Source: Hydnum rufescens UP504
Lineage: Eukaryota; Basidiomycota; Agaricomycetes; Cantharellales; Hydnaceae
Assembly: GCA_014904985.1 (NCBI GenBank)
Contig: MU128985.1
Location: 180,232-244,231 of the forward strand
Length of the DNA stretch: 64,000 bases
Reading direction: 5' to 3'
Shown here: one piece after another, positions 31,692 to 53,070 of the stretch
Layout of the letters: every line of letters begins with the position of its first letter
Numbering within the stretch: position 1 is the first letter of the stretch
The notes under the pieces: model-generated
Told to the model about the DNA's origin: nothing
Database searches by the model: none
The model's input: the letters and a program-made list of their open reading frames with translations, nothing else
Position numbers and translations under genes: made by a program

Positions 31692-32490
31692 ATGTCTGAA
31701 TCTGCCAAATTATCAGTCACAAAGCTTCATGGCCATGAGAACTATGCTGCATGGGCTGCTGATCTCCACCTGATCATTCGCCATGCTGGACAATGGTCCT
31801 GGATCCAAGGGAAGAATGTCACCCTGCCAACTGCCAAAATCACCAATGTGAATAATGCTCTAATCAATGATCCATCATATGAATTGAAAATTGAAATCTG
31901 GGAGAAGGGTGCTGTCAATGTCATGTACAACATTGTTCTCACCTGTGAACCTGCTGTGAAGTCCCACATCACTCATGATGAAATTCCCTCTGTGGCATGG
32001 AACAAATTGTGCACATGTATGAACCAAAGGGTCTGTCTGCCCAATTCTATGCTGCCCAAAAGATATTCTCCTCCTCACTCTCCAATTTCACATCTGTTGC
32101 CAAGTTTTCTGCTGCCCTTGAGACTGCTGCTGCCAACTACACTTCATCCAGCCCCATCAACAGTCCTCCCATCCCCAACACTCTCCTTGCCCTTGCCCTC
32201 CTCCATGGGCTGCCTGCCTCTTACAACATCATCTGCACCACATTGCTCACCAGTATCACATCTGTAACCTTGGATGATGTCAAAGGGGCACTAATGGATG
32301 AAGAGACATGCATACAACAGTCCATCACTGACTCCTCATTGAAAGGCACATCAGCTGCTCTGCAGGTTAATACTGGGCACTGGTGAGGCCCACCAAAAAC
32401 CCCTGAGGAGAAGGTGAAGTATGACGAATGGCTGAAGACAGCCACCTGCCACACCTGCAAAAAACCTGGCCACATTGTTGGAGGGAAAAA
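31692..32490 (+). pseudogene. copia-1 gag remnant
   Basis: Starts at ATG 31692 (MSESAKLSVTKLHGHENYAA), with the copia gag pattern YAAWAADLHLIIRHAG. A frame change at about 32000 leads into FYAAQKIFSSSLSNF and LLHGLPASYN, and then the zinc knuckle CHTCKKPGHIVG, whose last Cys is lost or displaced where element E2 begins. It packages the element RNA in the intact family; here it is broken. Confidence 0.8.
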
Positions 32491-33990
32491 TCCCTACCAC
32501 ATAGAGTCCCCTTTCAGTGTCAAATTTTCTAGATGAATGAATTAAAAATGTACCAATATGTCATCTGAATAACAATTCTTTCATTTGTTCAAGAATGAGC
32601 CTGAATTCCATATGCTTGAAGACATGTAAATGGAATGCTCATTCCCCTTGTACATGAGTCAATCTCCCAGGGTCTTCAACAGGCACAGGGACTGTATTCA
32701 TCTATGCCCTACCATAAGCCATGATATGGTGGACCCAGCAATTCAACTTGCCCTTCTGTATATTGTCTTGAATTCTCCTTCAATCCCTTCAAATCAATCC
32801 TGCTGCCTTAAGGGCGACTCTAACAAATTAGGATTATGTAATATGATGGATTACACACCCGGGCCTTCATTCCTACTTGCAGATACATTACATAATCAAA
32901 TAGGGGCAAATGCGGCACTCTTAAGGAGTATTCATCTAATTTCTCCATCAGTTTTGATCGTATCGGCTCGGAAAAGTAGCTTTGCAGAAAGATATGATTT
33001 ACACCTATCTAACGATACTGAAGCACGAGTCAATCCGATTAAAATTGCATGTTCTAGAATGATTTTACTATGGAATCCATGCTCTTAAGGAGTATTTTCC
33101 GCTTTTCACAGTCAATTCGTATCCAATCGACTCGCAAATATGGCTCCCTGAAAGCTGTGATTAATACCTATCAGATGATATTAATTATGTGCTTATCAGA
33201 TTAAAACTGAAGCTTCTGGAATGATTCCACCTGCTCATTCATAATCAGAAGGTGTATTTTTCAAATTTCTGTCAGTTTTGATCAGATTTTCATGAAACAA
33301 CTGCGCCTAGAAAGGTATTAAAAATGCCCATCCAATGGTATAAAGGGTGTCATGAAGGAAGAAAAACTCGGTGTCCTGCATATGAATTTCCCCCTTGTCT
33401 CAGGAGAACATCATTCCTCCTTCCAATTTTCAAATATTGAATATTGTCTGGCAGCCTTATATCCAAAGGATAGGATGTCCAGGGCAACTTATTCCACCAT
33501 TCCTCAAGTGGATCTGTCCAAAAGGGAAGGAGAAATAGTCATTTTATGCTTTATCCTATCCCCAGCCTTGTAAATTGAATATCTCTGTCAGTTTTGAAGC
33601 TTTTGACTTGATTCCTTTTGCTACATATTTCCCCTATCCCCCTGCTTCTGTCGGATATTTTATCTCATAGCCAGGTTGTATATTAAGTGAATTGTGTTGA
33701 AAATTCCATTGTCTTCCCCCTCCCCAGTCTGAAGCACTGAAGTATTGCTGCTGGATTTCCAGGCGAATTCCATCTGAGGACACTGCTACTACTACACTTT
33801 GTCTAAGGCCACAAGACTAGGACCTTGGAGTGTGGTATTTGTGGCATAATTTCCCCTTTATTCATCTGCTTGGGCAACTACTGCTGACAGTGGATTATCT
33901 TCTATCCTAAAGACCCTCCTACACTTGGACCTGAATATTTGGATTATTTTGGTGGCCCCCATTCTTCATTCTTGATTCCATATCATGGAC
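32490..33990 (-). mobile_element. non-autonomous element E, copy 2, inside copia-1 gag
   Basis: Reverse-strand relative of 23605-24985, about 1.5 kb, splitting gag from protease. It carries several copies of the module that contains GATCAAAACTGACAGAG-like cores (seen here as the complement, near 32950, 33280 and 33585). No coding capacity. Both boundaries are approximate. Confidence 0.55.
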
Positions 33991-34019
33991 TGTAGCTGAG
34001 ATTCCCCCTTTTTCTCCTG

Positions 34020-36642
34020 CTTACAATGTAAAAGCCAAATGCCCTGAGAAAACCTCTGTGAGTGGGAAGGAGGGACAGGAAAACCTTGTCACTGTTCATG
34101 CCATTGATGGTGAGGTGGATGTGATGATGGCCACTGCCACAGCCAGTCCTCCCTCCGAACCAGTGGAAATGTATGCAGCTACTGCCAAAGCCAATCTTGC
34201 ACCTCCTTTGTGATCAATGTGGGTTATCAATTCTGGATGCTCTGACCATATGGCTCTGACCATGACTGACTTCACCTTGATACAAGACTTACCCAATCCC
34301 TTCAAGAGGTGCACCTTGCCAATGGCTCACACATTCTTGCTTATGGGGAGGGCCTGGTATCTCTGCCTGGAATTGTCAGTGGCCATGACACCACCCTGCA
34401 ACTTTCCTGGGTCCTGCATGTCCCAGAACTGACGAATGCCCTGCTGTCAATATGCACCCTTATGCATCAAGGTCATGAGGCCATATTCACAGGCAACCAA
34501 TGCCTTATTCATGCAAAATCTGGAAAAATCATTGCAGAATCCTGTGAACATGGAACACTACTCCAGCTGCACCTTCAGCCCACTCACCCAGCCCTGTCTC
34601 TCCCTTCCTCACCACCTGCCATATCACCCCAGGCCCTGCAGACCACCCACCCCACCCCCTCCCTAGACCTTCTTCACAAGCATCTTGGCCATCTGAGTAT
34701 CCACACCCTACAGGATATGCTGCACCACAAACTTGTCGATGGAGTTGATGGAATTGCCCTTGACAAAGTCAGTGACACTCCCTGTGAATCCTGCATTATG
34801 GCCAAAATGACTTGCCTCCCCTTTGACATCAGTCACACTCATGCACCTGACATCCTTGGCCACATCCACTCAGACATTTGCAGTGAAATGGACATCCCAT
34901 CCCTTGGAGGCAACCTTTACTTTGCCACACTTGTTGATGACAAATCTGGAATGGTTTGGACTCATTCCCTAAAACATAAAAGGGAGTTCACACCTTGGTT
35001 CATCAAAATGGACAAAATCTTCCTGAACTTGATTGGACATCACATTGGCATCCTATGCACCAATAATGGAGGTGAATACATCAATATTGAGCTGGAGACT
35101 TACTGCACTGAACACGGAATCCAAGTTGAGCACACTGTTGTTGGTACTCCTGAGAAAAATGGTGCTGCAGAGTGGATGAATCACACTCTCATGAATAAGG
35201 TTCAGGCCATGCTCAAGGACATGGGTTGTCATCAAGGACTTTGGGCCAAAGCCTTGGCCACTGCCACTTACTGTCATCAGTGCACCATGATATCCTCAAA
35301 TGGTGGAATCACTCCCTTCAAGTCCTTCTACAACCACAAACCTGACATCTTGCACCTTTGAGTCTTCTATTGTGATGCTTACATCCACATTCCCAAAGGT
35401 GATGGAGCAAAAAATTGGGTGATAGAGCTTGGAAGGTAAAGTTCCTGGGGTACCCAGAAGGTGTCAGTGGATACTGGTTCTGGGACCCAGCTATGCACTG
35501 CACATACACTAGCTGCTCCCCCTTGTTCATTGAAACCACTCTCCCACACACTGAAGTCGAATTTACCACCCCTGAGGGCCCACCCAGTGAGGATGCCAAC
35601 CGACCACCTGCCAACCAAGCCAGTGAGCCTTCCCTACACAATCCTCACCCTGACCTTCTGGATGCCCTTCCTCCTGCTGCACCCCTACCAGGCTATGTGA
35701 TCATTGCTCTATTAAAGCCCTGAAGCACCTTGAGCCTGATGACTATGGTCATTATGGCATTTTACGAGACACCATTCGCAAGGACACACCTGAGGGTTCC
35801 CTACAGGCCAATATCACCCAGGAGCTCATCAGCCTTCTAAGCACTGCCCACATCAAGGGGGCAGATGATACCTTGGATATTGGTACTGAACTTCCTGACC
35901 TACCCCACACTGATGATGCACTTTCTGGACCAGAATCCCATCTCTGGGATGCTGCTATTTGTGCTGAACTTGATTCTATCCAAAAGGCTGATGTCTATGA
36001 CCTCATAAACCCCAACACTATCAGCATCCCAAACCTCATTGGGAATAAAATGGTACTCCACCAGAAGCATGATGAACATGGACAGATTACCTGCTACAAA
36101 GCTTGCTTGATGGCTCATGGTGACTGACAATGGGAAAACATCAACTACATTGAAAGTTTTGCTCTGGTTGTCAAGTCTGCTGCTATCCAAGTCTTCCTTG
36201 CCCTTTGCATTCAGCACCACCTGAAAATCCATCACATGGATATCAAGTGCACCTTCCTTCATGGCATCCTCAAGGAACATATCTTTATGCACCAGCCCAA
36301 GGGCTATGAGGAATGAGGGAAGGAGATCTGGGTTTGGAAGCTCAAGAAAGCTTTATATGGTCTGAAGCAAGGGCAATGTGAATGGTATGCAACTATCAAC
36401 ACCTTCTTTCTCACCTTGGGGTTCAACCACACACAAGCTGATCACTGCATCTACCTGCTACACTGAAATGACAACTATGTTGTCATATCCCTGTATGTTG
36501 ATGACCTTCTTATTGGCTACAATAATATGGCTCTGATGCAACATATTGTTACTGAATTGGAGTCCCACTTTGAAATGGTTGACCTTGGACTTGTATGCTG
36601 GATCCTCAGGATGCACATTCACTACAACCTCAAAACCTCAAC
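34020..36642 (+). pseudogene. copia-1 pol: protease, integrase and start of reverse transcriptase
   Basis: Protease motif reads WVINSGCSDHM (34217), with Asn where the family has catalytic Asp. The GAG-pre-integrase part has HLGHLSIHTLQDML and CESCIMAKM. Integrase reads LVDDKSGMVW, then CTNNGGEY (normally RTDNGGEY) and TPEKNGAAEWMN. After a frameshift near 35361-35450, the reverse transcriptase starts: MAHGD, stop, QWENINYIESFALVVK; HHMDIKCTFLHGIL; KKALYGLKQG; and SLYVDDLLIG, whose YVDD is intact. In-frame TGA codons at about 36124, 36316 and 36465 sit where family members have Arg or similar. The solo LTR splits it at 36643. Confidence 0.88.
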
Positions 36643-37129
36643 TGTTAGTGGTGTCTGGAGTCCCTTAGGCCACTTGGCAAACTCATAGGTAGAGTCATAG
36701 CTCTTGACTCCCCTTTTCTCTTTCTTTTCTCCTTCATCCTTATTCAAACCCAGTGGAAAGCTTCTCCACTGGAGTTTGGTGCTGCCCTGGCTTATAGTTA
36801 GATTCGTCTCTTATTACATAATCAGTCTAGTGATAGCCAGCCATGGCAGAGCCCGAAATGCATCTTTTCTACCATCATCAACTGTCTGACTCACAGAGTC
36901 GCGGACCTGTTGATTACGCACTACACATTGTGCGACTCCCAGCTTTATGACTAAACCTTCTTACTTTGCCCTAGTGGGCATAGAAACCCTAACCCTCCAG
37001 GGACTGTTAGCCTGTCGGGCTAGATGGAATGGTCTCCGTCCCACAGACTGGACTAATCCATTGGAACTGGAACCTCCTCCATCCTCCGGTCCCTCCCCAC
37101 TCCTTAATTCAGATACTACCGAATTAACA
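36643..37129 (+). mobile_element. 487-bp solo LTR inside copia-1 reverse transcriptase
   Basis: Starts TGTTAGTGGTGTC and ends GAATTAACA, flanked by the 5-bp duplication TCAAC (36638-36642 and 37130-37134). A second copy of identical length lies at 60136-60622 in the opposite orientation. The copies differ at 11 places by my count; 9 are CpG against TpG or CpA. Confidence 0.92.
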
Positions 37130-37960
37130 TCAACCCTCACTGTTGACCAGTCACAGTATCTGAAAACAGGACTCACCCAATTTGGAATGGCTGACTGCAA
37201 ACCGACTTCAACCCCCCTTCCAGAAAAAATCATACTGGGGCCTGCAACTGATGCTGAGGTTGATGCCACTTGCAATTTTCTGTACCTTGAAGTGATTGGA
37301 TCCATGATGTACACAATGACTGGAACCCGCCCTGATATCACCTATGCTGTTGCTGCACTGTCTAGATTCTCCTCTTGTCCAGGCACTAAACATGTCACCG
37401 CTCTCAAGCACCTCCTCTGATACCTTGCTGGCATTATCCACTATAGCATTACCTTCCAATCTGATGGTGGAAACCTCCTCAGTTACACTGACTCTGACTA
37501 TGCTATGGACCCAACAACTCACAAATCCATCTCTGGCTATGTGTTCACCCTGTCAGGTGGGCTGGTCTCATGGAGCTCCAAAGGCCAAGCCATGGTTGCT
37601 CAATCCTCCACTGAAGCAGAGTATATTGCTGCTGTGGAAGCCACCAAAGAGCTTATCTGGCTCTGCCACTTGCTGCTGGATTTGGATCAGGACATTACCT
37701 CCCCCACCACACTCTTCATTGATAATCACAGTGCCCAAATCCTTGCCAAAAATCCCATTAATCATGCCCATACCAAACATATTGACATCTGCCACCATTA
37801 CATCTGCCAGTGCATTACTGATGGTTCCATCAACCTTAAATTCATCTCCACTGCTGACAATCCTGTGGACCTCTTCACCAAGCCCCTCAGCCAGCACAAA
37901 GTCTGCCTCTTCCAATCCTTGGTGGGGCTGACACACCTCCCCCCAAATTGTGACACCTAG
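37130..37960 (+). pseudogene. copia-1 pol C-terminal part: RT thumb/connection and RNase H
   Basis: Continues the reverse transcriptase after the solo LTR: GMADCKPTSTPLPE, SMMYTMTGTRPDITYAVAAL, then a TGA before YLAG where the family has Arg. RNase H reads YAMDPTTHKSISGYVFTLSG, SWSSKGQAMVAQSSTEAEYI and DIRHH-like ICHHYICQCI. It ends before the PPT and 3' LTR. Confidence 0.85.
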
Positions 37961-39812: not shown

Positions 39813-40760
39813 TCATGTGGCCATTGCTGCATATAGTAAGGACCCAGTGAGGTTTTGATATGGGATAGATCTCATTTCAGCTCGTTCTGTGTCAGTTTGT
39901 GGGGATTGCACAACAGATAGGGGGTTGTTTGGGTCCAGTGGGGTGTGTACAGTATTTGCATCTAGCATGCCATACCGCTCACTGATGTCCTGGATATAGT
40001 GCCATTGGGATAGAGTGATTGTCCAGTTTGGGCAGTCACATATGATTTCCATTCCTAGGAGGAAGTGTGTGTCTCCCATTTCAGTAATCTTGAATTGTCC
40101 CTTCAGCTGCAACTTTACTTTGGCCCATGATGTGGCTGAGTTTGTGGCCACCAGCATATTGTCAACATAGAGCACAATGATGATGAGGACTCCATTGTGA
40201 TTGTGTACATATAGGCATTTATCCCCAGAGCATGTGACAAACCTGAGTTTTATGAGGGTGTTATTGATGAGGTCATTCCAGACCTGGCCAGATTGTTTTA
40301 GGCCATATATGGTGCATAGTAGTAGCCAAATGTCATCTGGGTCTGCCTCAATGCCATCTGGTGGTTTCATATATATCTCCTCTTTTAGGTAGCTGTTCAG
40401 GTAAGCAGTTTTGATATCGAGCTGTTCAAGGTCGAGGTCATACATTGTGGCAAGGGCACAGATGAGTCTGATGGATGCGATTTTGGTTATGGGTGTGTAT
40501 GTTTCGAGGTAGTCAATCCCAGGGACTTGGCTAAAGCCTTGTGCAATGAGTCTGGCCTTGTGGTGGATGACTTTTCCTGTAGCATCTTGTTTTAGTTTGA
40601 AGATGAGTTTACTGCCAATGAGTTTTCAGCCTTCAGGGACGTCCTTGCATTTAATGACTTTGAAAGTGTTGTTTTCTATAATTGATTGTATTTCTTCATC
40701 AATCCCTTGTTTCCAGTTGTTGGCATCAAGGCTTCACATTGCTTCTTTGTAGCTGTGGGG
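39813..40760 (-). pseudogene. copia-2 reverse transcriptase
   Basis: Reads LEQLDIKTAYLNSYLKEEIY, MKPPDG, TIYGLKQSGQVWN, then the active-site box as VLYVDNMLV, where Asn replaces the second Asp, and FKITEMGDTHFLLGMEI. The GAC-GAT to GAC-AAT change is a CpG transition on the coding complement. Upstream (40760-40445) the region is stop-rich. Confidence 0.88.
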
Positions 40761-40903
40761 TTTGTCCATGCTTTGGAGTGTGGTCACAGCTGTGAGTGCA
40801 AATGTATTGTGCTCATGTGTGGTGATTGTTGCCACTGTTGCAGTGCTGGCCTCAATGGGATATTCAGCGGCTTGCTGGAAATCACTCTCACTGGAGGCAT
40901 TAT

Positions 40904-42400
40904 TTAGATCTTCTTGGCACCATATTGGGGGCGATGGTTCCACTGTGGGTGTACTGGGGTTTCATCCACAGTGGGGTTTGCTTCTATAGCAGGAGTTTTG
41001 TCTATGGTGGAAGGTTCTTCTTCTTGGGGCAGGATGTCAATTGCCTGGTCATTTTTGGGCTCTTCATCAGGCCAGATGTCTGGTTCTTGTGGTGCATCTT
41101 GAAGGTAGGATCCCTCATTGAATATGACATTGCGGGATATGATGATGCGACGGTCACTGATGCACCGGAGGTGGTAGGCCTTGCTCCCAGTGGCATATCC
41201 TAGTAGTATGCACTTATCTGATTTGTTGTCTAGTTTTTTTTGGAGTGCCTTAGGGACATATGCATATGCAATGGTTCCGAATTCTCGGATGCCAAGGATG
41301 TGGGGGCACTTCTTAGACCAAGCTTCCATGGGTGTTTTATTTTCTAGTGTGGCATGAGGGGATATATTTCCAAGGTATGTAGCAGTGAGAGTGGCTTCTG
41401 CCCAGAATCCATTACATTCCTGCTGCCTTAAGCATAGGCCTGACTTTTTTGATGATTGTCCAGTTCCCCTGCTCTGACATTCCATTCTGCTCCGGGGTGT
41501 ATGGAGTGGATGTCTGGGAGGCAATCCCTTCAGTTGTCAAATAGTGTTGGAAGTCAGATGAAGTATATTCACCTCCATTATCACTTCGGATAGTCTTGAT
41601 TTGCCGCCCGGTTTCCTTCTTGACAGATGCTTTAAATTCCAAGAAGGATGCCAGGACCTCGCTTTTGCTGATAAGATGTATAGGAATTTTTGTTGGGAAT
41701 GGTCATCTGTGAATGTGACAAAGTAATGCTTGCTGCTAATTGATGGTGGGAGGGGACCACAGACATCGGAGTGGATGAGGTCAAGGATGCCACTTGAATT
41801 TGTTTTGTTGTTGGGGAATGGGAGTCAGTGTGCCTTTCCAAGGGCACAGGGTTCACAAAATTCCTGACTTCCAGTGAGTTTATTTATGTCATCTACCATG
41901 CCCTGGTTGACTAGTCATTGAATGTTGTTGAATCCAAGGTGGCCTAGTCATTGGTGTAGAGTGTTTATATTGATCAAGTGAGGTGTGGCAGTGTTGGCAG
42001 TTACATGGTGGTGTGTGACATGGGCAAGGAGTTGATAGAGATCACTTGGCCCCTGTCAGGAGGCCACACCAACAATTGTGCCAGAGTTCTTTGACTTTAT
42101 GTTGCAATGATTACCATCAAATATGAGGGTGTGATTGCGCTTGGTGAGGTCTGCCACTGAAAGGAGAGTGGTGGCCATGCACTTGGCATATAGGACATTG
42201 GCTATATATCTGTACATTGTGCCCCCATTGACATCAAGCTTTAGGTGGATTGTTCCAACTCCAGTGGCTGATATGGAGGATGCATCACCCAGGTCAATGC
42301 TGATTGGATTATCTAATTGGTGGAATGTGGTTTCATCAAACCAGTTGTGTCAGGGGGAGATGTGGCATGAGCACCCTGAGTCAATTAGGATGTCATCAAG
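40904..42400 (-). pseudogene. copia-2 protease and integrase
   Basis: Protease DDILIDSGCSCHISP keeps the catalytic Asp (about 42390). Then GAG-pre-integrase with LGHLGFNNIQ and ALGKAH; integrase with DLIHSDVCGPLPP, FTDDHSQ, TIRSDNGGEYTS and YTPEQNGMSEQ. In-frame TGA codons interrupt at Arg positions, for example after GKAH (41828), after FNNIQ (41918) and after LHQ (41946). Frameshifts lie near 41640 and 41500. The C-terminal part reads MPLEAWSKK-like TPMEAWSKKCPHILGIREFG. Confidence 0.85.
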
Positions 42401-43125: not shown

Positions 43126-43561
43126 TGGCTGCTGCACAATCATGGCAGGCTGGTCAGCCAATTATCAGTATCTAATTAGATACTTTGAGGGTTGCATTTA
43201 TATGCTCTAACTAGATATACAGCCCATGGGGCCCCTGGTGGCCCCTGTGGGCTAACTTGGATGGGCTCAGGGGGGCTCAAGTACTGATCCAGGGGCCCCA
43301 GGGGCCCCTCAGCACTGCCTCCAAAGGCCTCATTTCAAACCCGAGTATTTTCTAAGTTCAGCTAGGGGCCCCCCACAATTAACTTAATGGTTTCAGTTTC
43401 TGTGTTATTTTTGCTAAGTACATATGTAGATAACATGGACTTATTCTTCATCACTACTAGTCCAGGCTGGTCAGTCACTTTTCCACATCATATTAGATAT
43501 CATGAGCATTGCATTTATCACATCTAACTAGGTCTTTACATGTGGGGGCCCCCAGGGGCCC

Positions 43562-45440
43562 CTGCCAGATTATGCATTATTAATTTATTGTTATTATTAT
43601 TATATTAGTATATACATCCATAGGCTCACCCTGTGCCCAAGAAGAGCAGCCAGAGGCTGCTCTTCTTGTGCAAGTGTAGCTAAAGAAAAAGCACTTACCT
43701 GGAATTCACCCCAGTCCAGGTGTGGGGTCCATTTGGGGAATCCCTCAAGGGGGTGTCGCTCACAGTTTTCATTTGTGTGGGCCTTCACGGCTTCATTCCC
43801 GGTTTTTGTTTGTGCGGTTGTGTGTGGTTTTGTTCCCAGTTTTTGTTTGGGGCATGTCATTTGGCAGGTCTGTGGCCAGGGGTTCATGCAGGTTCTGGTC
43901 CAATATCTAGAGAAGTAGTTAATGAGTTAGTTAAACATGAATGCAGCACAAAAAGAGCAGCTCATGCTGCTCTTTTTGTGCCACAAGAATAAGGAATAAA
44001 AATAAAAAATAAAACATACCTTGTAGTACCCCACACCCACTGCGGGGGTGTGGGGTACTTGGGCCATGGACTCCAGGTCATCTGTACGACTGTTTGTATG
44101 GGTCTTCTCTGTGCCCTGTCATTCAGGCATCGATAAGTGGGGTGGCAGGGGGTTTTGTGTCAGTATTCATTTGCAGGAAGACTTGAGACCTAGATGAGAC
44201 AACATTTAAATTAGTTAAAAATTAAACATCATGCAAAAAGAGCAGCTTTTGCTGCTCTTTTTGCATGGCTGTAGGTACTGGGGGGGGCAGGAACTCACCT
44301 AGTATAGAACCACACACCCACTGTGGCGGGTGTGTGATTCCTGGGGTGTTATTTGACACAGTTGTGCCCTCGTTTGGCACAGTGCCATATGTTGCGTCAT
44401 TGGCACATTGGGGTTTGGTGCGATGCAGTGGCATGTTGCCGTGTGTCGCATTGCCATATATCACATTGCCGTGTTGCGTTTCCATGCATCGCATTGGTGT
44501 TTGGGCTCTCATTGTTGGATGAGGCCTCAATCTGAAATAAATAAAGATATTAGTAAAATATTCCAAAGCAGTGCAAAAAGAGCAGCTTACGCTGCTCTTT
44601 TTGCACCACAAGAATAAAAAAGAAAAAAAGAAGTCTTACTTTGTAGTACCCCACACCCACTGCAGCGGGTGTGGGGTACTGGGGCCATACTCCAGCCCAT
44701 GGGCCTGTTGTTTGGGTGTCGATGGGCAGGGTTACGGGGGTTCTCACGCATCATGTTGTGGGCAGGGTGCCATATGTCATGTTGTTGGCACAGTGCCGTA
44801 TGTCATGTCATTGGCATGGTGCCACACGTCGTGTTGTTGGCACGGTGCCATGTGTCGCGTTGTTGGCATGGTGCCATACGTCGCATTGTTGGTGTGGTGC
44901 CATGTGTTGCATTGTTGGCATGGTGCCATACATCGCATTGTTGGCGTGGTGCCATATGTCACATTGTTGGCGTGGTGCTATATGTCGCGTCATTTGGCAC
45001 GTCTTTGTTTGGGGCATTGCTGTTTGGGCCCTCGTTTCACAGGTTTTTGTTGTGCCTTGGACCCCAGGCCTCAATCTAGAAGAATACATGATATGTTAGT
45101 AAAAGATTCAAAGAAGCACAAAAAGAGCAGCTTATGCTGCTCTTTTTGTGCCATTGTATCTACAAGCAAAAAAACACACCTTATGACCACACACCCACAG
45201 TGATGGGTGTGTGGTCGCATGCTTGCCTTTCTGGGTGATAACCTGTTGTGGTGGCGGAGAGGAGAAGGAAGATGAGAAATTCAATGCTGGCAATTGCCAA
45301 TACTCAAGAAGTGCCCAAGCACAGGCGCTACAAGCACAGCACACATCCATAGCAAGTATGTAGATATGGAATAAATAGTATATAATAAATATTTGTCCAA
45401 TAAAATGTGAAGAAAAAGAAGATAATGGGTCAGAGCTCAA
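43562..45440 (-). ncRNA. left array: five introns and six exons, minus strand
   Basis: Predicted introns, on the plus-strand scale: 45179-45076 (104 bases), 44639-44532 (108), 44298-44190 (109), 44019-43907 (113), 43698-43562 (137). Donors are GTGTGT, GTAAGA, GTGAGT, GTATGT, GTAAGT; acceptors end CTAG, TCAG, CTAG, CTAG, GCAG. Exons between them are 436, 233, 170 and 208 bases. Exon 2 (45075-44640) holds nine 26-bp tandem repeats. Exons begin ATTGAGGCCT twice, showing common origin. A frame beginning MDVCCACSACAWALLEY runs through exon 1 to the first donor, but I could not follow one frame through all exons; I therefore class the array as a probable spliced non-coding or decayed transcript. 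Confidence 0.45.
44769..45002 (-). repeat. nine 26-bp tandem repeats in left-array exon 2
   Basis: Units read TGCCATATGTCACATTGTTG plus GCGTGG on the plus strand. Twenty-six is not a multiple of three, so each frame cycles through the three phases; on the minus strand this gives alternating ATYGTTPT, MAPCQQ and TWHHTNN blocks without stops over most of the tract. It keeps more CpG than neighbouring exons. Confidence 0.9.
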
Positions 45441-46018
45441 TAAGGCATGATATGGTTAATTGCAAAGTGGATTGGGCCAGTTCTATGCATCAGAATTAGC
45501 CCAAATTTAAATATAGTGATGGTATATATACACCCTACATGGAGGATTAATTATCTCGGACAATTCTTGCATTTTCCAAGTTTTCACACCTTCAATTCCC
45601 TATTTAGGGAATTGAAGGCATGAAAACTTGGAAAATGTGAGAATCGTCCAAGATAATTAATCCCCCATGTAGGGTGTATATATACCATCAAATAGGAATT
45701 GAAGGTGTGAAAACTTGGAAAATGCGAGAATTGTCTGAGATAATTAATCCTCCATGTAGGGTGTATATATACCATCACTATATTTAAATTTGGGCTAATT
45801 CTGATGCATAGAACTGGCCCAATCCACTTTGCAATTAACCATATCATGCCTTATTGAGCTCTGACCCATTATCTTCTTTTTCTTCACATTTTATTGGACA
45901 AATATTTATTATATACTATTTATTCCATATCTACATGCTTGCTATGGATGTGTGCCATGCTTGTAGCACCAGCACTTGGGCACTTCTTGAGTATCAGCAA
46001 TTGCTGGCATTGAATTTT
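45275..46018. repeat. central inverted duplication with three promoter-like units
   Basis: Left arm about 45275-45602, right arm about 45697-46018, over 90% alike by eye. The innermost unit of about 80-90 bases, holding GTATATATAC, occurs three times: reversed at 45524-45602, forward at 45606-45692 and forward again at 45697-45776. Each has a TATATATA box placed to drive transcription outward into the arrays. Confidence 0.88.
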
Positions 46019-46077
46019 GCAACTATGCAGCCACACCCTGCAACAGAAAGGCGACCACACAACCACGACACAACAGC

Positions 46078-46097
46078 CACAGCAACAACAGCAACAG

Positions 46098-46125
<28 letters not shown>
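46078..46125 (+). repeat. CAG/GCA trinucleotide repeat
   Basis: AACAGCAACAGCAGCAGCAG-type tract in right-array exon 1; it reads as poly-Ala with Thr in the open frame. The left array lacks it, so it arose after the inverted duplication. Confidence 0.9.
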
Positions 46126-46128
<3 letters not shown>

Positions 46129-46398
46129 CCCAGTGCATGACCATGGCCACACGACCACATACCCGCTGATGCGGGTGTGTGGTCATAAGGTAAGTTTTGT
46201 CTCAGTACCTACAATAGCACAAAAAGAGTAGTGCAAGCTACTCTTTTTGCGCCGCTGTGAATCTTTATACTAATGTAGCCTTTATTATTCCAGATCAAAA
46301 CCAAAACAAACAACAGGCTGCCCAATGAGTGGCCCCAGGAACCACACCTGCTGCAGCGGGTGTGGTACTATTTAAGGTGAGTCCCCCCCCCCCAATAG

Positions 46399-47212
46399 AT
46401 AAGACACTGCGCATTCATACTCATCCACTATCCCGGTACTTCCTGGTATTTTCTTAAGTGCCTGCAACTCAACACTGAGAGGAATTTGGTGACTGAGGAT
46501 AGCTTAGAAATGACTGTCTGAAGAACTTCTCAGTTTCAGAATTGTAAAATATAGCCCCAGTCAGGAGCTTTACAACTTGCAAAACTATTCTAATGAAAGA
46601 TGCTTGTTTTGCAATTTTACAGAGATTCAGGTCTGAGCCACCCAAGTTTTGGTTTATCCAAATAAGGAAATTTCCTTATTTGGATGTTCCTTTTAAGGAG
46701 AGTTTCCTTATTGGGATGGCCAAATTTGGCAGGCTTTCCCTAGATGCCCAAGCCTGTCAGGAGCTGCTGACCCAGGAGTAAACACTTCAGGCCTATACTT
46801 GGGAGAATATGCACAAAAAGGCATGGAAAATCTCAAAGAAGCATAGGTATACTGACTTGTGGAAATGCAACAGAGGCTTCATGTCTGAATTTCTATAATA
46901 TTAAATTCTACATTTCAGGTTTTCAAATCTCTTCAGTTCATGAATGGATATTGACATGCCTTAATGGCTCAAAAGCAGTATGGGCAGCCAAAAAGTATCA
47001 TGGCCACCAGTGCCTCCCACCTGAAATGGAACATGACATAGATTTTGATATGGAGGCTTTCAGGTGTGATTTACTTAGTAACTTTACCTCATGGGGTGTA
47101 TAGCTGGTGGTGCCAACTTGATGGGTGATAAATTTGGCATCACATGACACCTTACATAATGAGTCTGGAGCTTACCGGATAGTGGATGAGTATGAATGCG
47201 CTGTATCTTACA
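46399..47212. mobile_element. 0.8 kb TIR element inside right-array intron 2
   Basis: About 37-bp inverted ends (GCGCATTCATACTCATCCAC at left, complement at 47179-47198). TA on each side may be the target duplication. No transposase. Its removal leaves an intron of about 100 bases like its neighbours. Confidence 0.75.
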
Positions 47213-47710
47213 GCTGCACAAAAAGAGTAGCGAAAGCTGCTCTTTTTGTGTTGCTTTACATTTTTTAACTAATAATATTTTATTCTAGGTATTGCCACAA
47301 ATGAAGACCTGTGAAGCAACCCCAACATGCCTGCAAAGGGGATCCGCAAATGGCGCACCACATGAAGAGATGAACCACATACCTGCAGTAGCGGGTGTGT
47401 GGTTCTATACTTGGTATGTACCCCTAATGATGCAAGAAGAGCAGCTTTTGCTGCTCTTTTTGTGTTGCTTTTAATTTTTTAACTAATTATTTTTTATTCT
47501 AGGTATTGTCACAAATGAACACCCATGAAGTAAGCCCCCCCAGGACAACAACACCCCTGTGAACAACGACATGCCATGAAGAGAAGAGCCACACACCTGC
47601 AGTAGCGGGTGTGTGGTTCTATACAAGGTGTGTAGTGTACCCCCAACACAATGCAAAAAGAGCAGCAAAAGCTGCTCTTTTTGTGTCACTTTTAATTTCT
47701 TAACTCATTA

Positions 47711-50682
47711 CAGTCTTTGACCAGCCACTGAATCAAATATTTCAATTTGCCATTTTCTACTTTTGTATTCATTCTTTTCCTTCATAAACTGTACTGGAGG
47801 GTGGTGTGGTGTCTCAATTTGTACAATGTGACTTTAATACTGTGTTGGATTAGATTTGAGGTTATACGAAGGTTTATGGTCTGGGGGTTATGATTTTTCC
47901 CATTACCACTCACTGAATCATTTTCCCAGCTTTATCCGAGCCCTTCACTCCCCCCCTGAATCATTCTCGGAACTGCTGCTACCATCACTGTTGGCCTCTG
48001 GAGGATCACCCAAGGCATTATCCAACCCTTCCCTATCATGTGCTCTATCAAATGCAGCCCACACATCCTTCTGCATTGCCATAATTGGGCGAGGTGGCAG
48101 ACCAATACCTTCTGCCCAACACCTTGCACACTCCTCCTTCCATGCCTTATCTGTAGTTTCATTGGCAGCCTTTGTCTTCTCCCACACTGCAGCCTGTTCC
48201 TTTTTGAATGTACGATTTTCCATCTTCTTGTGCTTTGCTTGGGATCTCCGTTGAGCCCGCACCTCCTTTGCATCCCGCACAGCTTCACGGTCATCATGTG
48301 CCTGTCGGAAGGCATTGTGCAGTTGGGCATCAGTTAGGACCCATGCCTTGCCATCCCCATGGAGACGAATCCCACTCTTCTCCTTCTTGTTCTCCTTATG
48401 CGCCAATTGTTCTTGTGCCTGATCTAGATACATTCCTGACAAAGCCAGTTGTGCATTTGCGACATCCGCAGCATCCTGGTAAGCATCTAGGGATTGTTTG
48501 GCAGTGTGGAGGTTGTCTCACAAATATTTGTTTGCTTCCAGAAGCTTGCGTACAGTACATTCGGATCTTGATCTTGGTGGGCTCATAATACAGCTCCGGT
48601 CAATAGAGGGGATTGGGCCATGCTTTTGATATATCCTTGGTGGTAAGCAGGATGATGATTTGAGTGGAGATGAGCTGAAAAGGAAATTTGCCAAGGATGA
48701 GGTGAATACGTCATGCAAATGGGTAGGTGTGCTTGGAGTTTGTAGCTGAGGGTCAATGATGAGTTGGCCAGTGCTTGTCTCAGTTTCAGCAAACTGGACA
48801 GGTGTATTGGTGGGCTGAGGAGAGGGATTGGCTTGATCGGTGGTAGTTTCTCCAGGTATGACCGTCACTTGTGAAGTGCTGGCCTGAGCCTCATGGAATG
48901 TCCCCAACAAGCGCTTGACAGGTGATGGGGGGTCAACCAGCAATGACCCTGTTGCAGCCAGCTCGAGACTTGGGGCAATCTGCTCCAGCGTAATGACAGT
49001 AGGGTCGAATGGATGGACACTGGTCTTTTGAAAGGATGCAAGTATATTTTCTTGGGTGAATGCCTTCAAGTGAGCCTTTCTGTAAACCTTGAGGAACACT
49101 CCTTTTGTGATTTTATAGCCAGTCTCTTGCTGGTACTCTTGAACAGTGGTGTTCCATGCATGCTTTGCCACAGAAAAGACCACAACATCAAGTCCTTGGA
49201 GGGCATGGGTCGCATGTGATGGATAGCAAATAATGACAATGTTCTGACTGTTGGTGAAGTCAATGAAATCAATAGATTCATGGGAAACATGGCCATCCAG
49301 AAGCAGGAACCAATATTCCCCAGAGTGAAGTAACTTTTCGTGTGTCTTTTCCTCGAAGTACTTGAGCCAGTCAAGGGCAATTTCATTTGCAGTCCACCCT
49401 TTTGTGGAGCAACAATACCTGTAGAGGGAGGTTTGATGTCACTAAATCATCAGGTATGAGGGACCATACACATGAAGCATCAAGGGGATTTTCTTGTAAC
49501 CAATCTTTCATAAAGTTTTTGCCCTTGAATATGACGGTGGGAGGAACAGAGGTACCATCAGCACAGATGGTTGCAAGTACAGTCACATTTTCCTTGTCAC
49601 CATCACGCCGTTGCTTCTGGCGCTTTGTACCCTTATGACCAATCACACATTCCCGCTCACTCCCCCCCATTGGATAGCCACTCTCATCCATGCCATAAAT
49701 GTTTGGGGTGCAGGGTTTGTATTTGTTGTAGGCACCACCTAATATATCCCAATAGTGCTTGAGATTTTCTGGATTGATTGCAGCTGCCTGGACAGTGTCA
49801 AGTCCAGAGCTCCAAAGAGAAGCCAGGCGGTCAGAGTGTTTGGTCACGAAGCGGTGAGCCCAATTCACACCAAGCTTTGCAATGTCTGGGTGGTTCTTAT
49901 GCACAATTTGGAGTGCATAGTCCGCAATCTTTGGCACCGTTAATGGGAAGCCTCGATCAGCCATTTTCAGGATGAATGAGATGAGCACTTCGCTTTCTGC
50001 CTGGCTGAGATGGCTCCTTGCCTCGTTTGATTCACCAATGGTCTTCCCACCATCCACATGGCACCGAAGAGTCCCTGGGTCAACACCATGCTTTATTGCT
50101 ATGGAGTGAAGGCTTGGACATTTCCCCCCCTCAAGATGTGCCTTGTTCAGGGCATCCCTATATGCATCTACCGCCCATTGGTGTCTTGCATTTCATTCTC
50201 ATGTGATAATATGGGCCTTCCGTTCTTGAGATAGAGCAGATTTTGTCATTTATAGTAGGTACCTCGAGGATAATTAGGGTTGGCAGGGAAGGCAATGATG
50301 AGGAAGAAGCAGGTTTTATCCGAGATTAAAATTTTCCCATTTCCACCCTTTCCCACATCAAAACAATACTTGCACCCATAGGGAGATTTATAGTAGGACA
50401 TGTGGTCTACAGTGTAGACAACTGATTTGGGACCAATTGGGCAAGGGCAGACATGGGGGGGAGGTGATTTAAAGTTGGTGGATGCTGAAATCATCATTTT
50501 GAAGCCTTAAGCGCTGCCATTCTCAAAAACCACACATTGGATCTCCTTCAAATTTTGAACATCAAGTACTAGAGAATACCTCTACATGATGTAAAAGGAA
50601 CAGAACAATTTTATTTGATACTCATAGAGATATGATGATTTGATTCAGTGACCGGTAGAGTTCAGTGGCCAGTCAAAGACTG
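47711..50682. mobile_element. pogo/Fot1-type transposon inside right-array intron 4
   Basis: Ends CAGTCTTTGACC and complement, flanked by TA (47709-47710 and 50683-50684), the Tc1/mariner-superfamily signature. The terminal inverted repeat is about 25 bases with mismatches. 2,972 bp. It encodes one transposase on the minus strand. Removing it leaves a 99-base array intron. Confidence 0.92.
47945..50205 (-). CDS. pogo/Fot1-type transposase (HTH psq, CENP-B HTH, DDE_1)
   Basis: Cut-and-paste transposase of the element's own ends. N-terminal HTH part: LNKAHLEGGKCPSLHSIAIK (about 50160-50080). CENP-B-like HTH: PKIADYALQIVHK and WAHRFVTKHSDRLASL. Catalytic domain: IYGMDESGYPMGG (first Asp), then, after an intron or frame change near 49385-49430, YWFLLLDGHVSHESI (second Asp, about 49290) and LQGLDVVVFSVAKHAWN (third Asp, about 49170). 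C-terminal part: FQKTSVHPFDPTVI, and after another break a Lys/Glu-rich coiled region ending SENDSGGE (47945). A TGA just upstream of the N-terminal block leaves the true start open. CpG is low but the catalytic residues are present, so it may have been active recently. Confidence 0.82.
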
Positions 50683-52147
50683 TATTTTTTTATTCTAGGG
50701 ATCATCACAAATGAAAACCCGATGAAGCAAGCCCCCCCCCAGAACAACAACATGCGAATGGCAATGTGCCACATGATGAGAAGAGCCACATGCCCACAGT
50801 AGTGGGTGTGTGGTTCTATACAAGGTGTTGTACCCCCAACGACACAAAAAGAGCAGCAAAAGCTGCTCTTTTTGTGTCGCTTTTAATTTTTTAACTAATA
50901 ATTGCTTATTCTAGGTATTGCCACAAATGAAGCCCCACGAAACAAGTCCCCCCAGAACTATAACACCTGCAAAGGGGATCTGTGAACAACAACATGCCAC
51001 ACAAAGAGATGAACCACACACCCACTACTGTGGGTGTGTGGTTCTATACTCAGTATGTAATGCACCCCCAACGGCACAAAAAGAGCGGCGAAAGCTGCTC
51101 TTTTTGTGTTCATTTTAATTTTTTAACTAACACATGATTTATTTATTCTAGGTTATCACCTCACCACCCACCACACGAACCCCCTCCCCCCTGGAAATGA
51201 CAATGTGACCTGCCAAGCTGCCAAAACCAATGCCGAACAAAGCCTGCCAACGACGACTGGCCAAGGGACACCCACCAGACGAATCCCGCAAATGGTAACA
51301 CACAACACAAGACCATGGAACCCCAAGATGAACCACACCTGCTTCAGCAGGTGTGGTAATTTTAAGGTAAATAAATATGATCATGCCAAAGGAGCAGCAT
51401 ATGCTGCTCCTTTGGCATAGCTTTTCTTGTTGTTTTTTTACTAACATAGTATTCCTTATCTTAGGTTTTGATCTACCCCCACCCCCCAAACAAGACCCGC
51501 AAATGACAGAACATGCGAGGCCACAGGAGCCCCGGATGAAGCCCACACCCACTTTGGTGGGTGTGATAATAATTTTTAATGTAAGTATTTACCATTTAAG
51601 TACGACCGCACAAAAGGAGCAGCATGTGCTGCTCCTTTTGCATGGTTTTTCCTTTTTTACTAACTTATTACTTATTATCATAGGTATTCTTCTAAACCCT
51701 CAATCAAGACTCGCGACCCTGCCGAATAAATATGCAACAACGGCAACCCATCCCCCAAATGAAACCCACAAATGACAGAACACGACACAAGGCCACAGAA
51801 GCCCTGGATGAACCCCACACCCACTTCGGCAGGTGTGATAATTTTTAAAGTAAGTATTCGCCCTCTATAAGTACAACCATGCCAAAGGAGCAGCGCAAGC
51901 TGCTCCTTTTTCATTACTTCAAATTTTTTACTAATATACACTATGATTCTAGGATCCAAAACAACAACCCACCCCAATGGCAACCTGCAACCCACACCCA
52001 TCTGTGAAGTGCCAAGCCACACCCCTGGTACCACACACCCACCCAAGCGGGTGTGTGGTGCTACTAGATAGTTTTTATTTTAATTTTTGTGTTCTTTTAT
52101 TTCTATGGACAGTACCACACACCCGCTAGAGTGGGTGTGTGGTGCTA

Positions 52148-53070
52148 CTAAGTAGTTTTTTTCTTTGGATTTCTACTGAGTACCACATCAGATACAGTAT
52201 TTAAATAAATGAATAATAAGAATAATGGGACTGCTGAATGAAACCCTGCTGACCCAGGGTAGCATAAGTATAATATAGTGATAATAAATAAATAATTATA
52301 AATGGAACATACTATCCCCAATAAGCCCGTATGGCCCACTGTCCTGCAAGTCTGAGAATCTCTAAGTCAGACTGAAAGACTGTGACTTCTTGCCATTGTC
52401 TGAGAATCTCTAAGTCCCAGTCTAAGGTGAGAGGGGCCCCTTGTCTCATGCTGTGAAATCACCCAGTGGGCCCCAGGGGCCCCCACCTAAAAACCCGCTC
52501 TTAGATTGAATAAAAGCAAGGCAAAAGGGCCTAACTAGATATACAATTATGGCTGACTGGTTTGGGTAACCCACCCTTGTCAATCAATGGCAGATGGCAT
52601 GGGTTTTCTTTACATGCAGGTCCAGAGGAAGGTACTTCTTTTTCTTGTAATATTCTTGCAGATTCTGGTGTGCTTTTTGGTTCATGACAGTCAGAACATG
52701 GGCGATAGATTTGCGAATGGTGGAGCTAAAGGTGTAGGAGAAACAGGTGCATTCATTTGTTAGTGGAGAAAATCACTATGTGCAACACACATTTGGGAGA
52801 GCTTGGATGCCAACAGAGAGGCAATCTTTTGCACACACAGGCTCAGGCTAAGAAGCTCTGTCTTGAGCTCTTGCAGTTGTTTTGTCAAGTCAGACTTTGA
52901 CCAATATATTTTTGAATATTCGCACCACAGTCAATACGCCTGTCCACATAGATCCAAGAGGTGTACCCAATACAGACTTGGACTGCAACTCATATAGCCC
53001 CTAAGTTGAATTGTGTGACATGATGCTCGATTATTGTGACTATTTTGACATGAGTCATAATGCTGTGGCT
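52148..53070. other. outer flank of right array and unassigned sequence
   Basis: GGGCCCCAGGGGCCCCC at about 52470 mirrors the GGGGCCCC-rich flank near 43240-43560. CTGAGAATCTCTAAGTC occurs twice (52347, 52398). No gene recognised from 52570 to 53070. Confidence 0.45.

What the first reader, a model, noticed from the sequence alone, without database searches (positions are those of the whole stretch)
43140..52570. Two diverging arrays of exon-intron modules, each intron and each exon marked by its own hairpin
Fourteen introns of 89-137 bases each carry one A-type hairpin between donor and branch-like motif, and each exon ends with a B-type hairpin next to the donor. Splice signals stay while exon bodies differ. 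Host genes in this window have introns of about 50-60 bases and no such hairpins. I know no fungal gene family or satellite of this form. Options: a structured spliced RNA, an introner-like element that amplifies with its intron, or an intron-bearing satellite.
Basis: partly seen in the sequence, partly recalled or inferred. Interest (0 to 1): 0.93.

Follow-up and report, generated by a model that had tools for sequence, protein, structure and literature searches.

The report
Jumping gene built from spliced hairpin modules
In a hedgehog mushroom genome, a repeated mobile DNA element appears to carry two back-to-back strings of small exon-intron units, each marked by its own RNA hairpins and probably spliced into an RNA that codes for no protein; I found no earlier description of such a design, but splicing itself has not been shown.

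Summary
In detail: 14 intron-like units (5 on the minus strand, 9 on the plus strand) diverge from a central palindrome, each intron with hairpin A, nearly every exon ending in hairpin B beside the donor. It is not a local oddity or a satellite. It is one copy (43463-52564; about 5.3 kb without two later insertions) of a dispersed transposon in Hydnum rufescens UP504: perfect 8-bp target duplications in 8 of 9 testable copies, thousands of A and B hairpins genome-wide, and a left end shared with elements that carry a KDZ transposase gene. Most likely it is a non-autonomous KDZ-type transposon whose body is a pair of divergent, multi-intron, non-coding transcription units. Branch sites and acceptors are nearly invariant between diverged subfamilies, signals lie on one strand only, exons show no coding constraint, and stems tolerate G.U more than A.C on the sense strand. 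Hairpin A resembles yeast 'zipper stems' that bring donor and branch point together. Not shown: transcription, actual splicing, mobilisation by KDZ, and why selection keeps splicing. The right end of the KDZ element was not found. I found no description in the papers searched.

The parts
43463..52564 (.). whole element copy (about 5.3 kb when the two nested insertions are discounted)
   Evidence: ends shared by the copies read; clean copy L021 1760-7091 is 5332 bp
43463..43563 (.). left terminal sequence CAGGCTGGTCAGTCA..., shared with a KDZ-gene element
   Evidence: about 78% identical over about 100 bp to the left end of L042
52515..52564 (.). right terminal sequence ...GGCTGACTGGTTTG, imperfect inverted counterpart of the left end
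45277..46017 (.). central palindrome, taken as a two-way promoter plus start of both first exons (function inferred)
   Evidence: 89% identical to its own reverse complement over 753 columns; a palindrome of 390 or more columns is found in 9 of 9 copies tested
43562..45179 (-). left array: 5 introns and the exons between them
   Evidence: A and B polarity
46190..51952 (+). right array: 9 introns and the exons between them
   Evidence: conservation
45076..45179 (-). left intron 1 (104 nt), A hairpin at about 45120-45147
44532..44639 (-). left intron 2 (108 nt)
44190..44298 (-). left intron 3 (109 nt)
43907..44019 (-). left intron 4 (113 nt)
43562..43698 (-). left intron 5 (137 nt), preceded by a degenerate B hairpin
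46190..46293 (+). right intron 1 (104 nt)
46377..47288 (+). right intron 2, enlarged by a nested insertion (103 nt in L021)
47414..47502 (+). right intron 3 (89 nt)
47628..50698 (+). right intron 4, enlarged by a nested pogo/Tc5-like transposon (97 nt in L021)
50825..50914 (+). right intron 5 (90 nt); the stretch 50823-50914 folds at z = -6.9
51053..51151 (+). right intron 6 (99 nt)
51367..51464 (+). right intron 7 (98 nt)
51581..51683 (+). right intron 8 (103 nt)
51850..51952 (+). right intron 9 (103 nt); its donor is altered in the diverged subfamily
47588..47617 (+). example of a B hairpin at an exon end, 10 nt before the donor
   Evidence: z = -5.7
46402..47208 (.). nested insertion with terminal inverted repeats and TA duplication (not part of the element)
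   Evidence: read; absent in L021
47711..50684 (-). nested pogo/Tc5-like transposon with TA duplication (not part of the element)
   Evidence: terminal repeats read; HTH_Tnp_Tc5 match; absent in L021

Best explanation
A non-autonomous DNA transposon of the KDZ (Kyakuja-Dileera-Zisupton) kind in Hydnum rufescens UP504. Its body is two divergent transcription units that start in a central palindrome. Each unit is a string of exon-intron modules duplicated in tandem. Shown here: element ends, target duplications, copy number, strand-specific splice signals and their conservation (right array), stem covariation, lack of coding constraint (right array), and a shared left end with KDZ-gene elements. 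Inferred: RNA polymerase II transcribes outward from the palindrome. The spliceosome removes the introns because hairpin A folds out about 40 nt and brings donor and branch point to a short distance, as yeast zipper stems do. Hairpin B lies in the exon beside the donor, so it stays in the spliced RNA; it hides GTGTG repeats that could serve as false donors and makes the product a chain of stems. KDZ transposase supplied in trans moves the element. Least certain: what selects for splicing. I favour that efficient splicing keeps the transcripts from being treated as faulty, since stalled spliceosomes on transposon RNA feed silencing in Cryptococcus (recalled; papers on it seen as a search listing), and so keeps the element active.
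For: Target duplications: 8 of 9 copies with both ends read have perfect 8-bp duplications, the ninth 7 of 8. Copies: besides the window, the 19 best-scoring places are 73-93% identical to the right array (40 of 1,541 candidates scored); about 5,760 A and 3,200 B hairpins per strand at up to one mismatch, reversed-pattern control 0. Polarity: 206 of 245 A hairpins have donor, branch and acceptor motifs in order on at least one strand, 1 of 245 on both. Conservation, L021 against 5 diverged copies, sites never CpG: branch 0.996, AG 0.987, acceptor -3 1.000, GT 0.918, A stem 0.933, B stem 0.944, against exon body 0.833, branch-to-acceptor 0.832, donor-to-A 0.775. Covariation above shuffles at several A and B pairs. 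G.U against A.C on the sense strand: 45 to 18 flank-cluster events, with no matching strand bias of mutation. Non-coding: 27 of 110 exon indels are multiples of three, and no open frame exceeds the shuffle maximum in 11 of 11 copies. Geometry: 148 introns, median 47 nt of linker around the stem; 80 of 148 meet all published yeast zipper-stem limits (limits from PMC12350175, passages). KDZ link: 6 of 26 KDZ hits listed on contigs C1-C34 lie 1.8-3.0 kb inside a listed left end, all transcribed toward it; hAT 0 of 22. L042 shares the terminal 100 bp; left junction seen in 6 of 6 copies. Gene models BS47DRAFT_1365174 and 1369242 agree with an array acceptor at one junction, judged from the homologous stretch of L041.
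Against: No RNA evidence of any kind. No intron-less copies found, so splicing is not proven by retrocopies. Donor positions 3-6 are only 0.800 conserved between subfamilies, no better than exon bodies, and the bases between B and the donor only 0.667. Among stem changes, other mismatches (87 cluster events) outnumber both G.U and A.C, and related copies are not independent. The right end and target duplications of the KDZ-gene elements were not found, so mobilisation by KDZ rests on one shared end, and the six KDZ loci may be copies of one element. The window's own copy has no matching flanks. 68 of 148 introns miss at least one zipper limit, mostly by a stem ending 15-19 nt from the branch point. 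In the close group splice signals decay only mildly less than other sites, as expected of dead copies. Diverged copies lack the GT of right intron 9. The two gene models place donors inside hairpin B, not after it. The reason for selection is not tested at all.
Confidence: 0.62

Rival explanations
1. The hairpins are DNA palindromes that bind transposase or host proteins, and the intron-like signals are incidental to the repeat unit.
For: A and B are near-perfect palindromes in DNA, tandem, and lie inside both ends; covariation alone does not separate DNA from RNA.
Against: Splice motifs are on one strand only, branch and acceptor are conserved more than neighbouring AT-rich sequence, and G.U pairs outnumber A.C on the sense strand. 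The KDZ-gene stretch L042 (left end to beyond the gene start, right end not included) shows neither hairpin in 4.6 kb.
Confidence: 0.15
2. The arrays are the decayed remains of a protein-coding gene family with repeats, as the public gene models suggest.
For: Two gene models overlap array sequence; some exons are open in one frame; in 5 of 11 copies the longest open stretch is above the shuffle mean.
Against: No open frame beyond the shuffle maximum in 11 of 11 copies, indels not in threes (27 of 110), exon lengths vary modulo 3; the B hairpin is read in different frames in different exons.
Confidence: 0.06
3. An introner-like element: the A-bearing intron is the mobile unit and the arrays are places where it inserted repeatedly.
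For: Thousands of similar hairpins in one genome, most of them in intron-like settings where examined.
Against: Colinear copies such as L021, L022 and L024 carry the same ordered modules in an element with its own ends and target duplications. Intron 4 is absent from all 5 diverged copies and from L024 as one exon-intron unit, leaving a hybrid exon in 5 of these 6, as unequal exchange would give.
Confidence: 0.07
4. The element is mobilised by a hAT-type or other 8-bp transposase, not KDZ.
For: 8-bp duplications also fit hAT (PMC12730594, passages); the genome has 90 hAT-dimerisation matches; the KDZ right end is unknown.
Against: 0 of 22 hAT hits but 6 of 26 KDZ hits lie inside a matching left end; about 100 bp of terminal similarity with a KDZ-gene element.
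Confidence: 0.1

Closest known systems
Zisupton/KDZ DNA transposons
   Same: 8-bp target duplications (stated for Zisupton in PMC12730594, passages); left terminal 100 bp similar to that of KDZ-gene elements of the same genome
   Different: no transposase; body made of exon-intron hairpin modules, not seen in the KDZ-gene copy read
Introners (PMC9860276, passages)
   Same: many related spliceosomal-type introns spread through a genome, probably by DNA transposition
   Different: introners are single introns inserted in genes; here a whole multi-intron unit moves and no host gene is needed
Zipper-stem introns of yeast (PMC12350175 and PMC12311795, passages)
   Same: a stem between donor and branch point that shortens their distance
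   Different: yeast zipper stems differ from intron to intron and between species; here one sequence family is repeated in thousands of units and is paired with an exon hairpin
Intron-containing centromeric dg/dh RNA of fission yeast (PMC5322907, abstract and outline)
   Same: introns in non-coding repeat transcripts
   Different: there splicing is inefficient and the introns help form heterochromatin; here splicing is inferred only, with signals repeated in every module
Stwintrons of Hypoxylaceae (search listings with abstracts only)
   Same: symmetric or amplified fungal introns
   Different: nested introns; no exon hairpins or multi-intron mobile unit mentioned in what I saw

Membership tests
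KDZ (Zisupton-like) transposon, non-autonomous | 8-bp target site duplication | tested here: met
   8 of 9 copies perfect, 1 with one mismatch; window copy itself none
KDZ (Zisupton-like) transposon, non-autonomous | terminal sequences shared with elements that encode KDZ transposase | tested here: inconclusive
   left end met; right end of KDZ-gene elements not found
KDZ (Zisupton-like) transposon, non-autonomous | KDZ transposase domain within the element (autonomous members) | tested here: not met
   clean copy L021 is 5.3 kb, mostly arrays and palindrome; its spliced right array has no long frame. I did not scan L021 with Pfam. Hence non-autonomous at most
KDZ (Zisupton-like) transposon, non-autonomous | movement by KDZ transposase in trans | not testable with these tools
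   needs an excision assay
Introner | intron itself is the inserted unit, with duplications or junctions at intron borders | tested here: not met
   duplications lie at the ends of the 5-kb element; modules are ordered alike among colinear copies
Introner | found in many host genes | not tested
   no gene annotation was available; the 100 rows listed, on contigs C1 and C2, mostly cluster
Spliceosomal intron | donor, branch and acceptor motifs in order | tested here: met
   GT and AG borders in 14 of 14 window units, picked by eye; all three motifs at 206 of 245 hairpin places in 23 sequences
Spliceosomal intron | removed from RNA | not testable with these tools
   no RNA reads; no intron-less copies
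Known structured RNA family (snoRNA and others) | match to an Rfam model | tested here: not met
   0 matches in the window at gathering scores
Satellite DNA | head-to-tail array without element ends | tested here: not met
   fixed ends and target duplications
Protein-coding gene | frame conservation | tested here: not met
   right array only

The most novel reading that the evidence does not exclude
A splicing-dependent selfish element: a DNA transposon that carries no protein and depends on host splicing. Its body is a self-amplifying string of standard modules (exon stem B, donor, intron stem A, branch, acceptor) read both ways from a palindromic promoter. The spliced, stem-studded RNA, or the act of splicing itself, protects or promotes the element, and it has spread modules of this design through the genome by the thousand.
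Probability: 0.35. Interest if true: 0.92.

Novelty: new variant of a known kind. Interest (0 to 1): 0.78.

Why it matters
If the introns are used, this is a transposon selected for splicing rather than for coding. That gives a natural test of how introns affect silencing of mobile DNA: thousands of matched units that differ in splice-site strength, stem strength and intron number in one genome. It would also be a large natural series for testing how a stem between donor and branch point affects splicing in a fungus other than yeast, and a possible source of ready-made introns for host genes.

Tried and rejected
Satellite, introner, coding gene and DNA-binding-site readings were weighed and ranked lower (see rivals). 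Rfam gave nothing. Scans for the A core elsewhere gave 106 prokaryotic stretches (80 listed, 79 of them with one hairpin and one with two) and 4 viral contigs with one each; I take these for chance or intrinsic terminators, without having read any of them. A crude search for host intron lengths failed. A first count of G.U against A.C (stem pairs 1-15: 141 to 93, mostly at pair 1 and at CpG pairs) and a second used searches that were not symmetric or included CpG pairs; they were replaced by a symmetric one without those pairs. I first took position 845 of L153 as the right end of the KDZ element; flanks of 5 other copies showed that only copy C13 breaks there. A search for a right end followed by the C98 duplication gave 19 matches against 6 in the reversed control, none on contig C98. 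Searches for spliced junctions found none: 0 for one junction, and for the other 2 places at 3 mismatches that read as intron acceptors, not junctions. Protein searches for further species with such arrays found only Hydnum rufescens (few candidates, low sensitivity). Literature; six papers were opened, as passages or outline.

Rows dropped: the conservation alignment holds the window and 10 of the 20 long loci L021-L040 (L021-L024, L026-L030, L039); the others were interrupted or not contiguous, and some rows used still hold insertions or gaps. Only the right array was tested for conservation and coding, with simple letter shuffles. One search used 15 of 20 loci; 9 had both ends. Searches used 148 of the 191 hairpins with full signals on the chosen strand, those with a B-type arm before the donor. 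One search dropped 17 B and 13 A places that looked sense on both strands, and left out A pair 1 and B pairs 2 and 3. One search used the 100 left ends listed (of about 1,084) and the listed KDZ and hAT hits on contigs C1-C34; 2 KDZ and 1 hAT hits lay just outside a left end. One search scored 150 of 584 KDZ candidates; one search scored 40 of 1,541.
Full report
What is there. The window shows two series of exon-intron units running outward from a central palindrome (45277-46017). I located 14 intron-like units, 5 on the minus strand and 9 on the plus strand. Each holds hairpin A (A/G-rich arm, GAGCAGC, 4-nt loop in nearly all, GCTGCTC, T-rich arm). Exons end in hairpin B (CCACACACCCGC, loop, GCGGGTGTGTGG) a few bases before the donor. 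In 64 kb the A core occurs 12 times at up to 3 mismatches, always here, and never in 100 shuffles. Two right introns hold later insertions: a pogo/Tc5-like transposon (HTH_Tnp_Tc5) and a smaller element, both with TA duplications; copy L021 has both empty sites.

It is a transposon. The 40 best of 1,541 candidate places were scored against the right array; the 19 best besides the window are 73-93% identical. Twenty stretches of about 10 kb around such places were fetched. Copies share one left end (CAGGCTGGTCAG...) and one right end (...CTGACTGGTTTG, with a variant in L035 and L036). Of the 9 copies where both ends were read, 8 have a perfect 8-bp target duplication and one has 7 of 8. The window copy has none and has a second left-end sequence 317 bp upstream, so it is rearranged. 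Left-end 15-mers occur about 1,084 times and right-end ones about 531 times at up to one mismatch, against 3 and 19 for the reversed patterns; A and B cores about 5,760 and 3,200 times per strand, with no match for the reversed patterns.

Organism. Proteins BS47DRAFT_1365174 and 1369242 of Hydnum rufescens UP504 match array sequence. Contig lengths of other proteins of that strain (618,593 and 101,506) equal those of contigs C4 and C210 here. The genome is therefore taken to be that of this hedgehog mushroom (Cantharellales).

The splice signals look used. In 23 sequences, 206 of 245 A hairpins have donor, branch and acceptor motifs in order on at least one strand, and only 1 on both, although the hairpin is nearly the same on both strands. 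Between L021 and 5 diverged copies, at sites never CpG, the branch site is 0.996 identical, AG 0.987 and the base before it 1.000, against 0.832 for the stretch between branch and acceptor, 0.775 between donor and A, and 0.833 for exon bodies (right array only, alignment). The donor is weaker: GT 0.918, lowered by right intron 9, whose donor is changed in the diverged copies, and positions 3-6 only 0.800. Intron 4 is absent from all 5 diverged copies and from L024, and intron 3 also from L029; where intron 4 is absent the two exons have become one hybrid in 5 of those 6 copies. So modules seem to come and go without breaking the pattern.

The exons do not look coding. In 11 of 11 copies no open frame of the spliced right array exceeds the maximum of 100 shuffles, though 5 of 11 lie above the shuffle mean; 27 of 110 exon indels are multiples of three.

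The stems look kept as RNA. Several pairs of A and B covary beyond shuffles. With a symmetric search, sense-strand G.U pairs outnumber A.C pairs 45 to 18 in events counted once per flank cluster; other mismatches make up 87 events. Changes in unpaired stretches show no bias that would cause this: outside CpG, C to T 29 (357 C sites in all), G to A 17 (181), A to G 43 (422), T to C 45 (291); at CpG 76 and 82. Relatedness of copies weakens this test.

Geometry. In 148 introns the median distance is 27 nt from donor to stem and 20 nt from stem to branch point, 47 nt in all, with 16 bp of unbroken stem. [quoted passage not shown] All three limits are met by 80 of 148, the total by 108. An intron averages 103 nt; with the stem folded out, 59 nt. 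I infer that A brings donor and branch point together.

Link to KDZ. KDZ transposase genes are abundant (154 matches, with 150 of 584 candidates scored). On contigs C1-C34, 6 of 26 listed KDZ hits lie 1.8-3.0 kb inside a listed left end, all transcribed toward it; 0 of 22 hAT hits do. The C13 copy (L042) has KDZ and CxC1 domains, a left end about 77% similar over 100 bp, and no A or B hairpin in the 4.6 kb read. Its first 1.3 kb recur whole at 16 places, its own included (40 of 400 candidates scored). The left junction is clean in 6 of 6 copies. Their right end was not found. I therefore call the element KDZ-type with reserve.

How it may work. Shown: structure, ends, dispersal, constraint. 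Inferred: outward transcription from the palindrome, which is present in 9 of 9 copies tested, splicing helped by A, and a spliced RNA studded with B stems. Speculative: selection for splicing because poorly spliced transposon RNA feeds silencing, as in Cryptococcus (recalled; search listing). Against all this stands the lack of any RNA evidence and of intron-less copies.

Novelty. The parts are known: non-autonomous transposons, zipper stems, introns in non-coding repeats (PMC5322907, abstract and outline), introners (PMC9860276, passages). I found no report of a transposon whose body is a string of hairpin-marked exon-intron modules in the searches, which cover open-licence papers only and were read mainly as listings.

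Noticed in passing
window 44729-45014: 26-bp tandem repeat, 8 or more copies, filling much of one exon of the left array; a long low-complexity exon also occurs in L041 36-389
   Followed up: no
window 43146-43246: a second left-end sequence, closer in its first bases to the KDZ-gene element's end than to the copy's own left end at 43463; the window copy lacks a target duplication
   Followed up: partly
right array in 6 close copies: CpG sites carry most C-to-T and G-to-A changes (158 against 46 at other sites in unpaired stretches), a sign of DNA methylation of inserted copies
   Followed up: partly
P0001, P0002 (BS47DRAFT_1365174, BS47DRAFT_1369242): public Hydnum rufescens gene models span array modules as if they were coding, with donors placed inside hairpin B
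   Followed up: yes
L041 344-1487: an array of a different subfamily that runs toward a left-type end, next to a KDZ gene and to an array of the window's family
   Followed up: partly
window 31692-37960 and 39813-41524: open frames that look like pieces of copia-type retrotransposons (judged by eye)
   Followed up: no
window 43220-43340, 43540-43570, 52450-52490; L042 160-480: runs of GGGGCCCC-type palindromes just inside the left and right ends, also present inside the left end of the KDZ-gene element (read)
   Followed up: no
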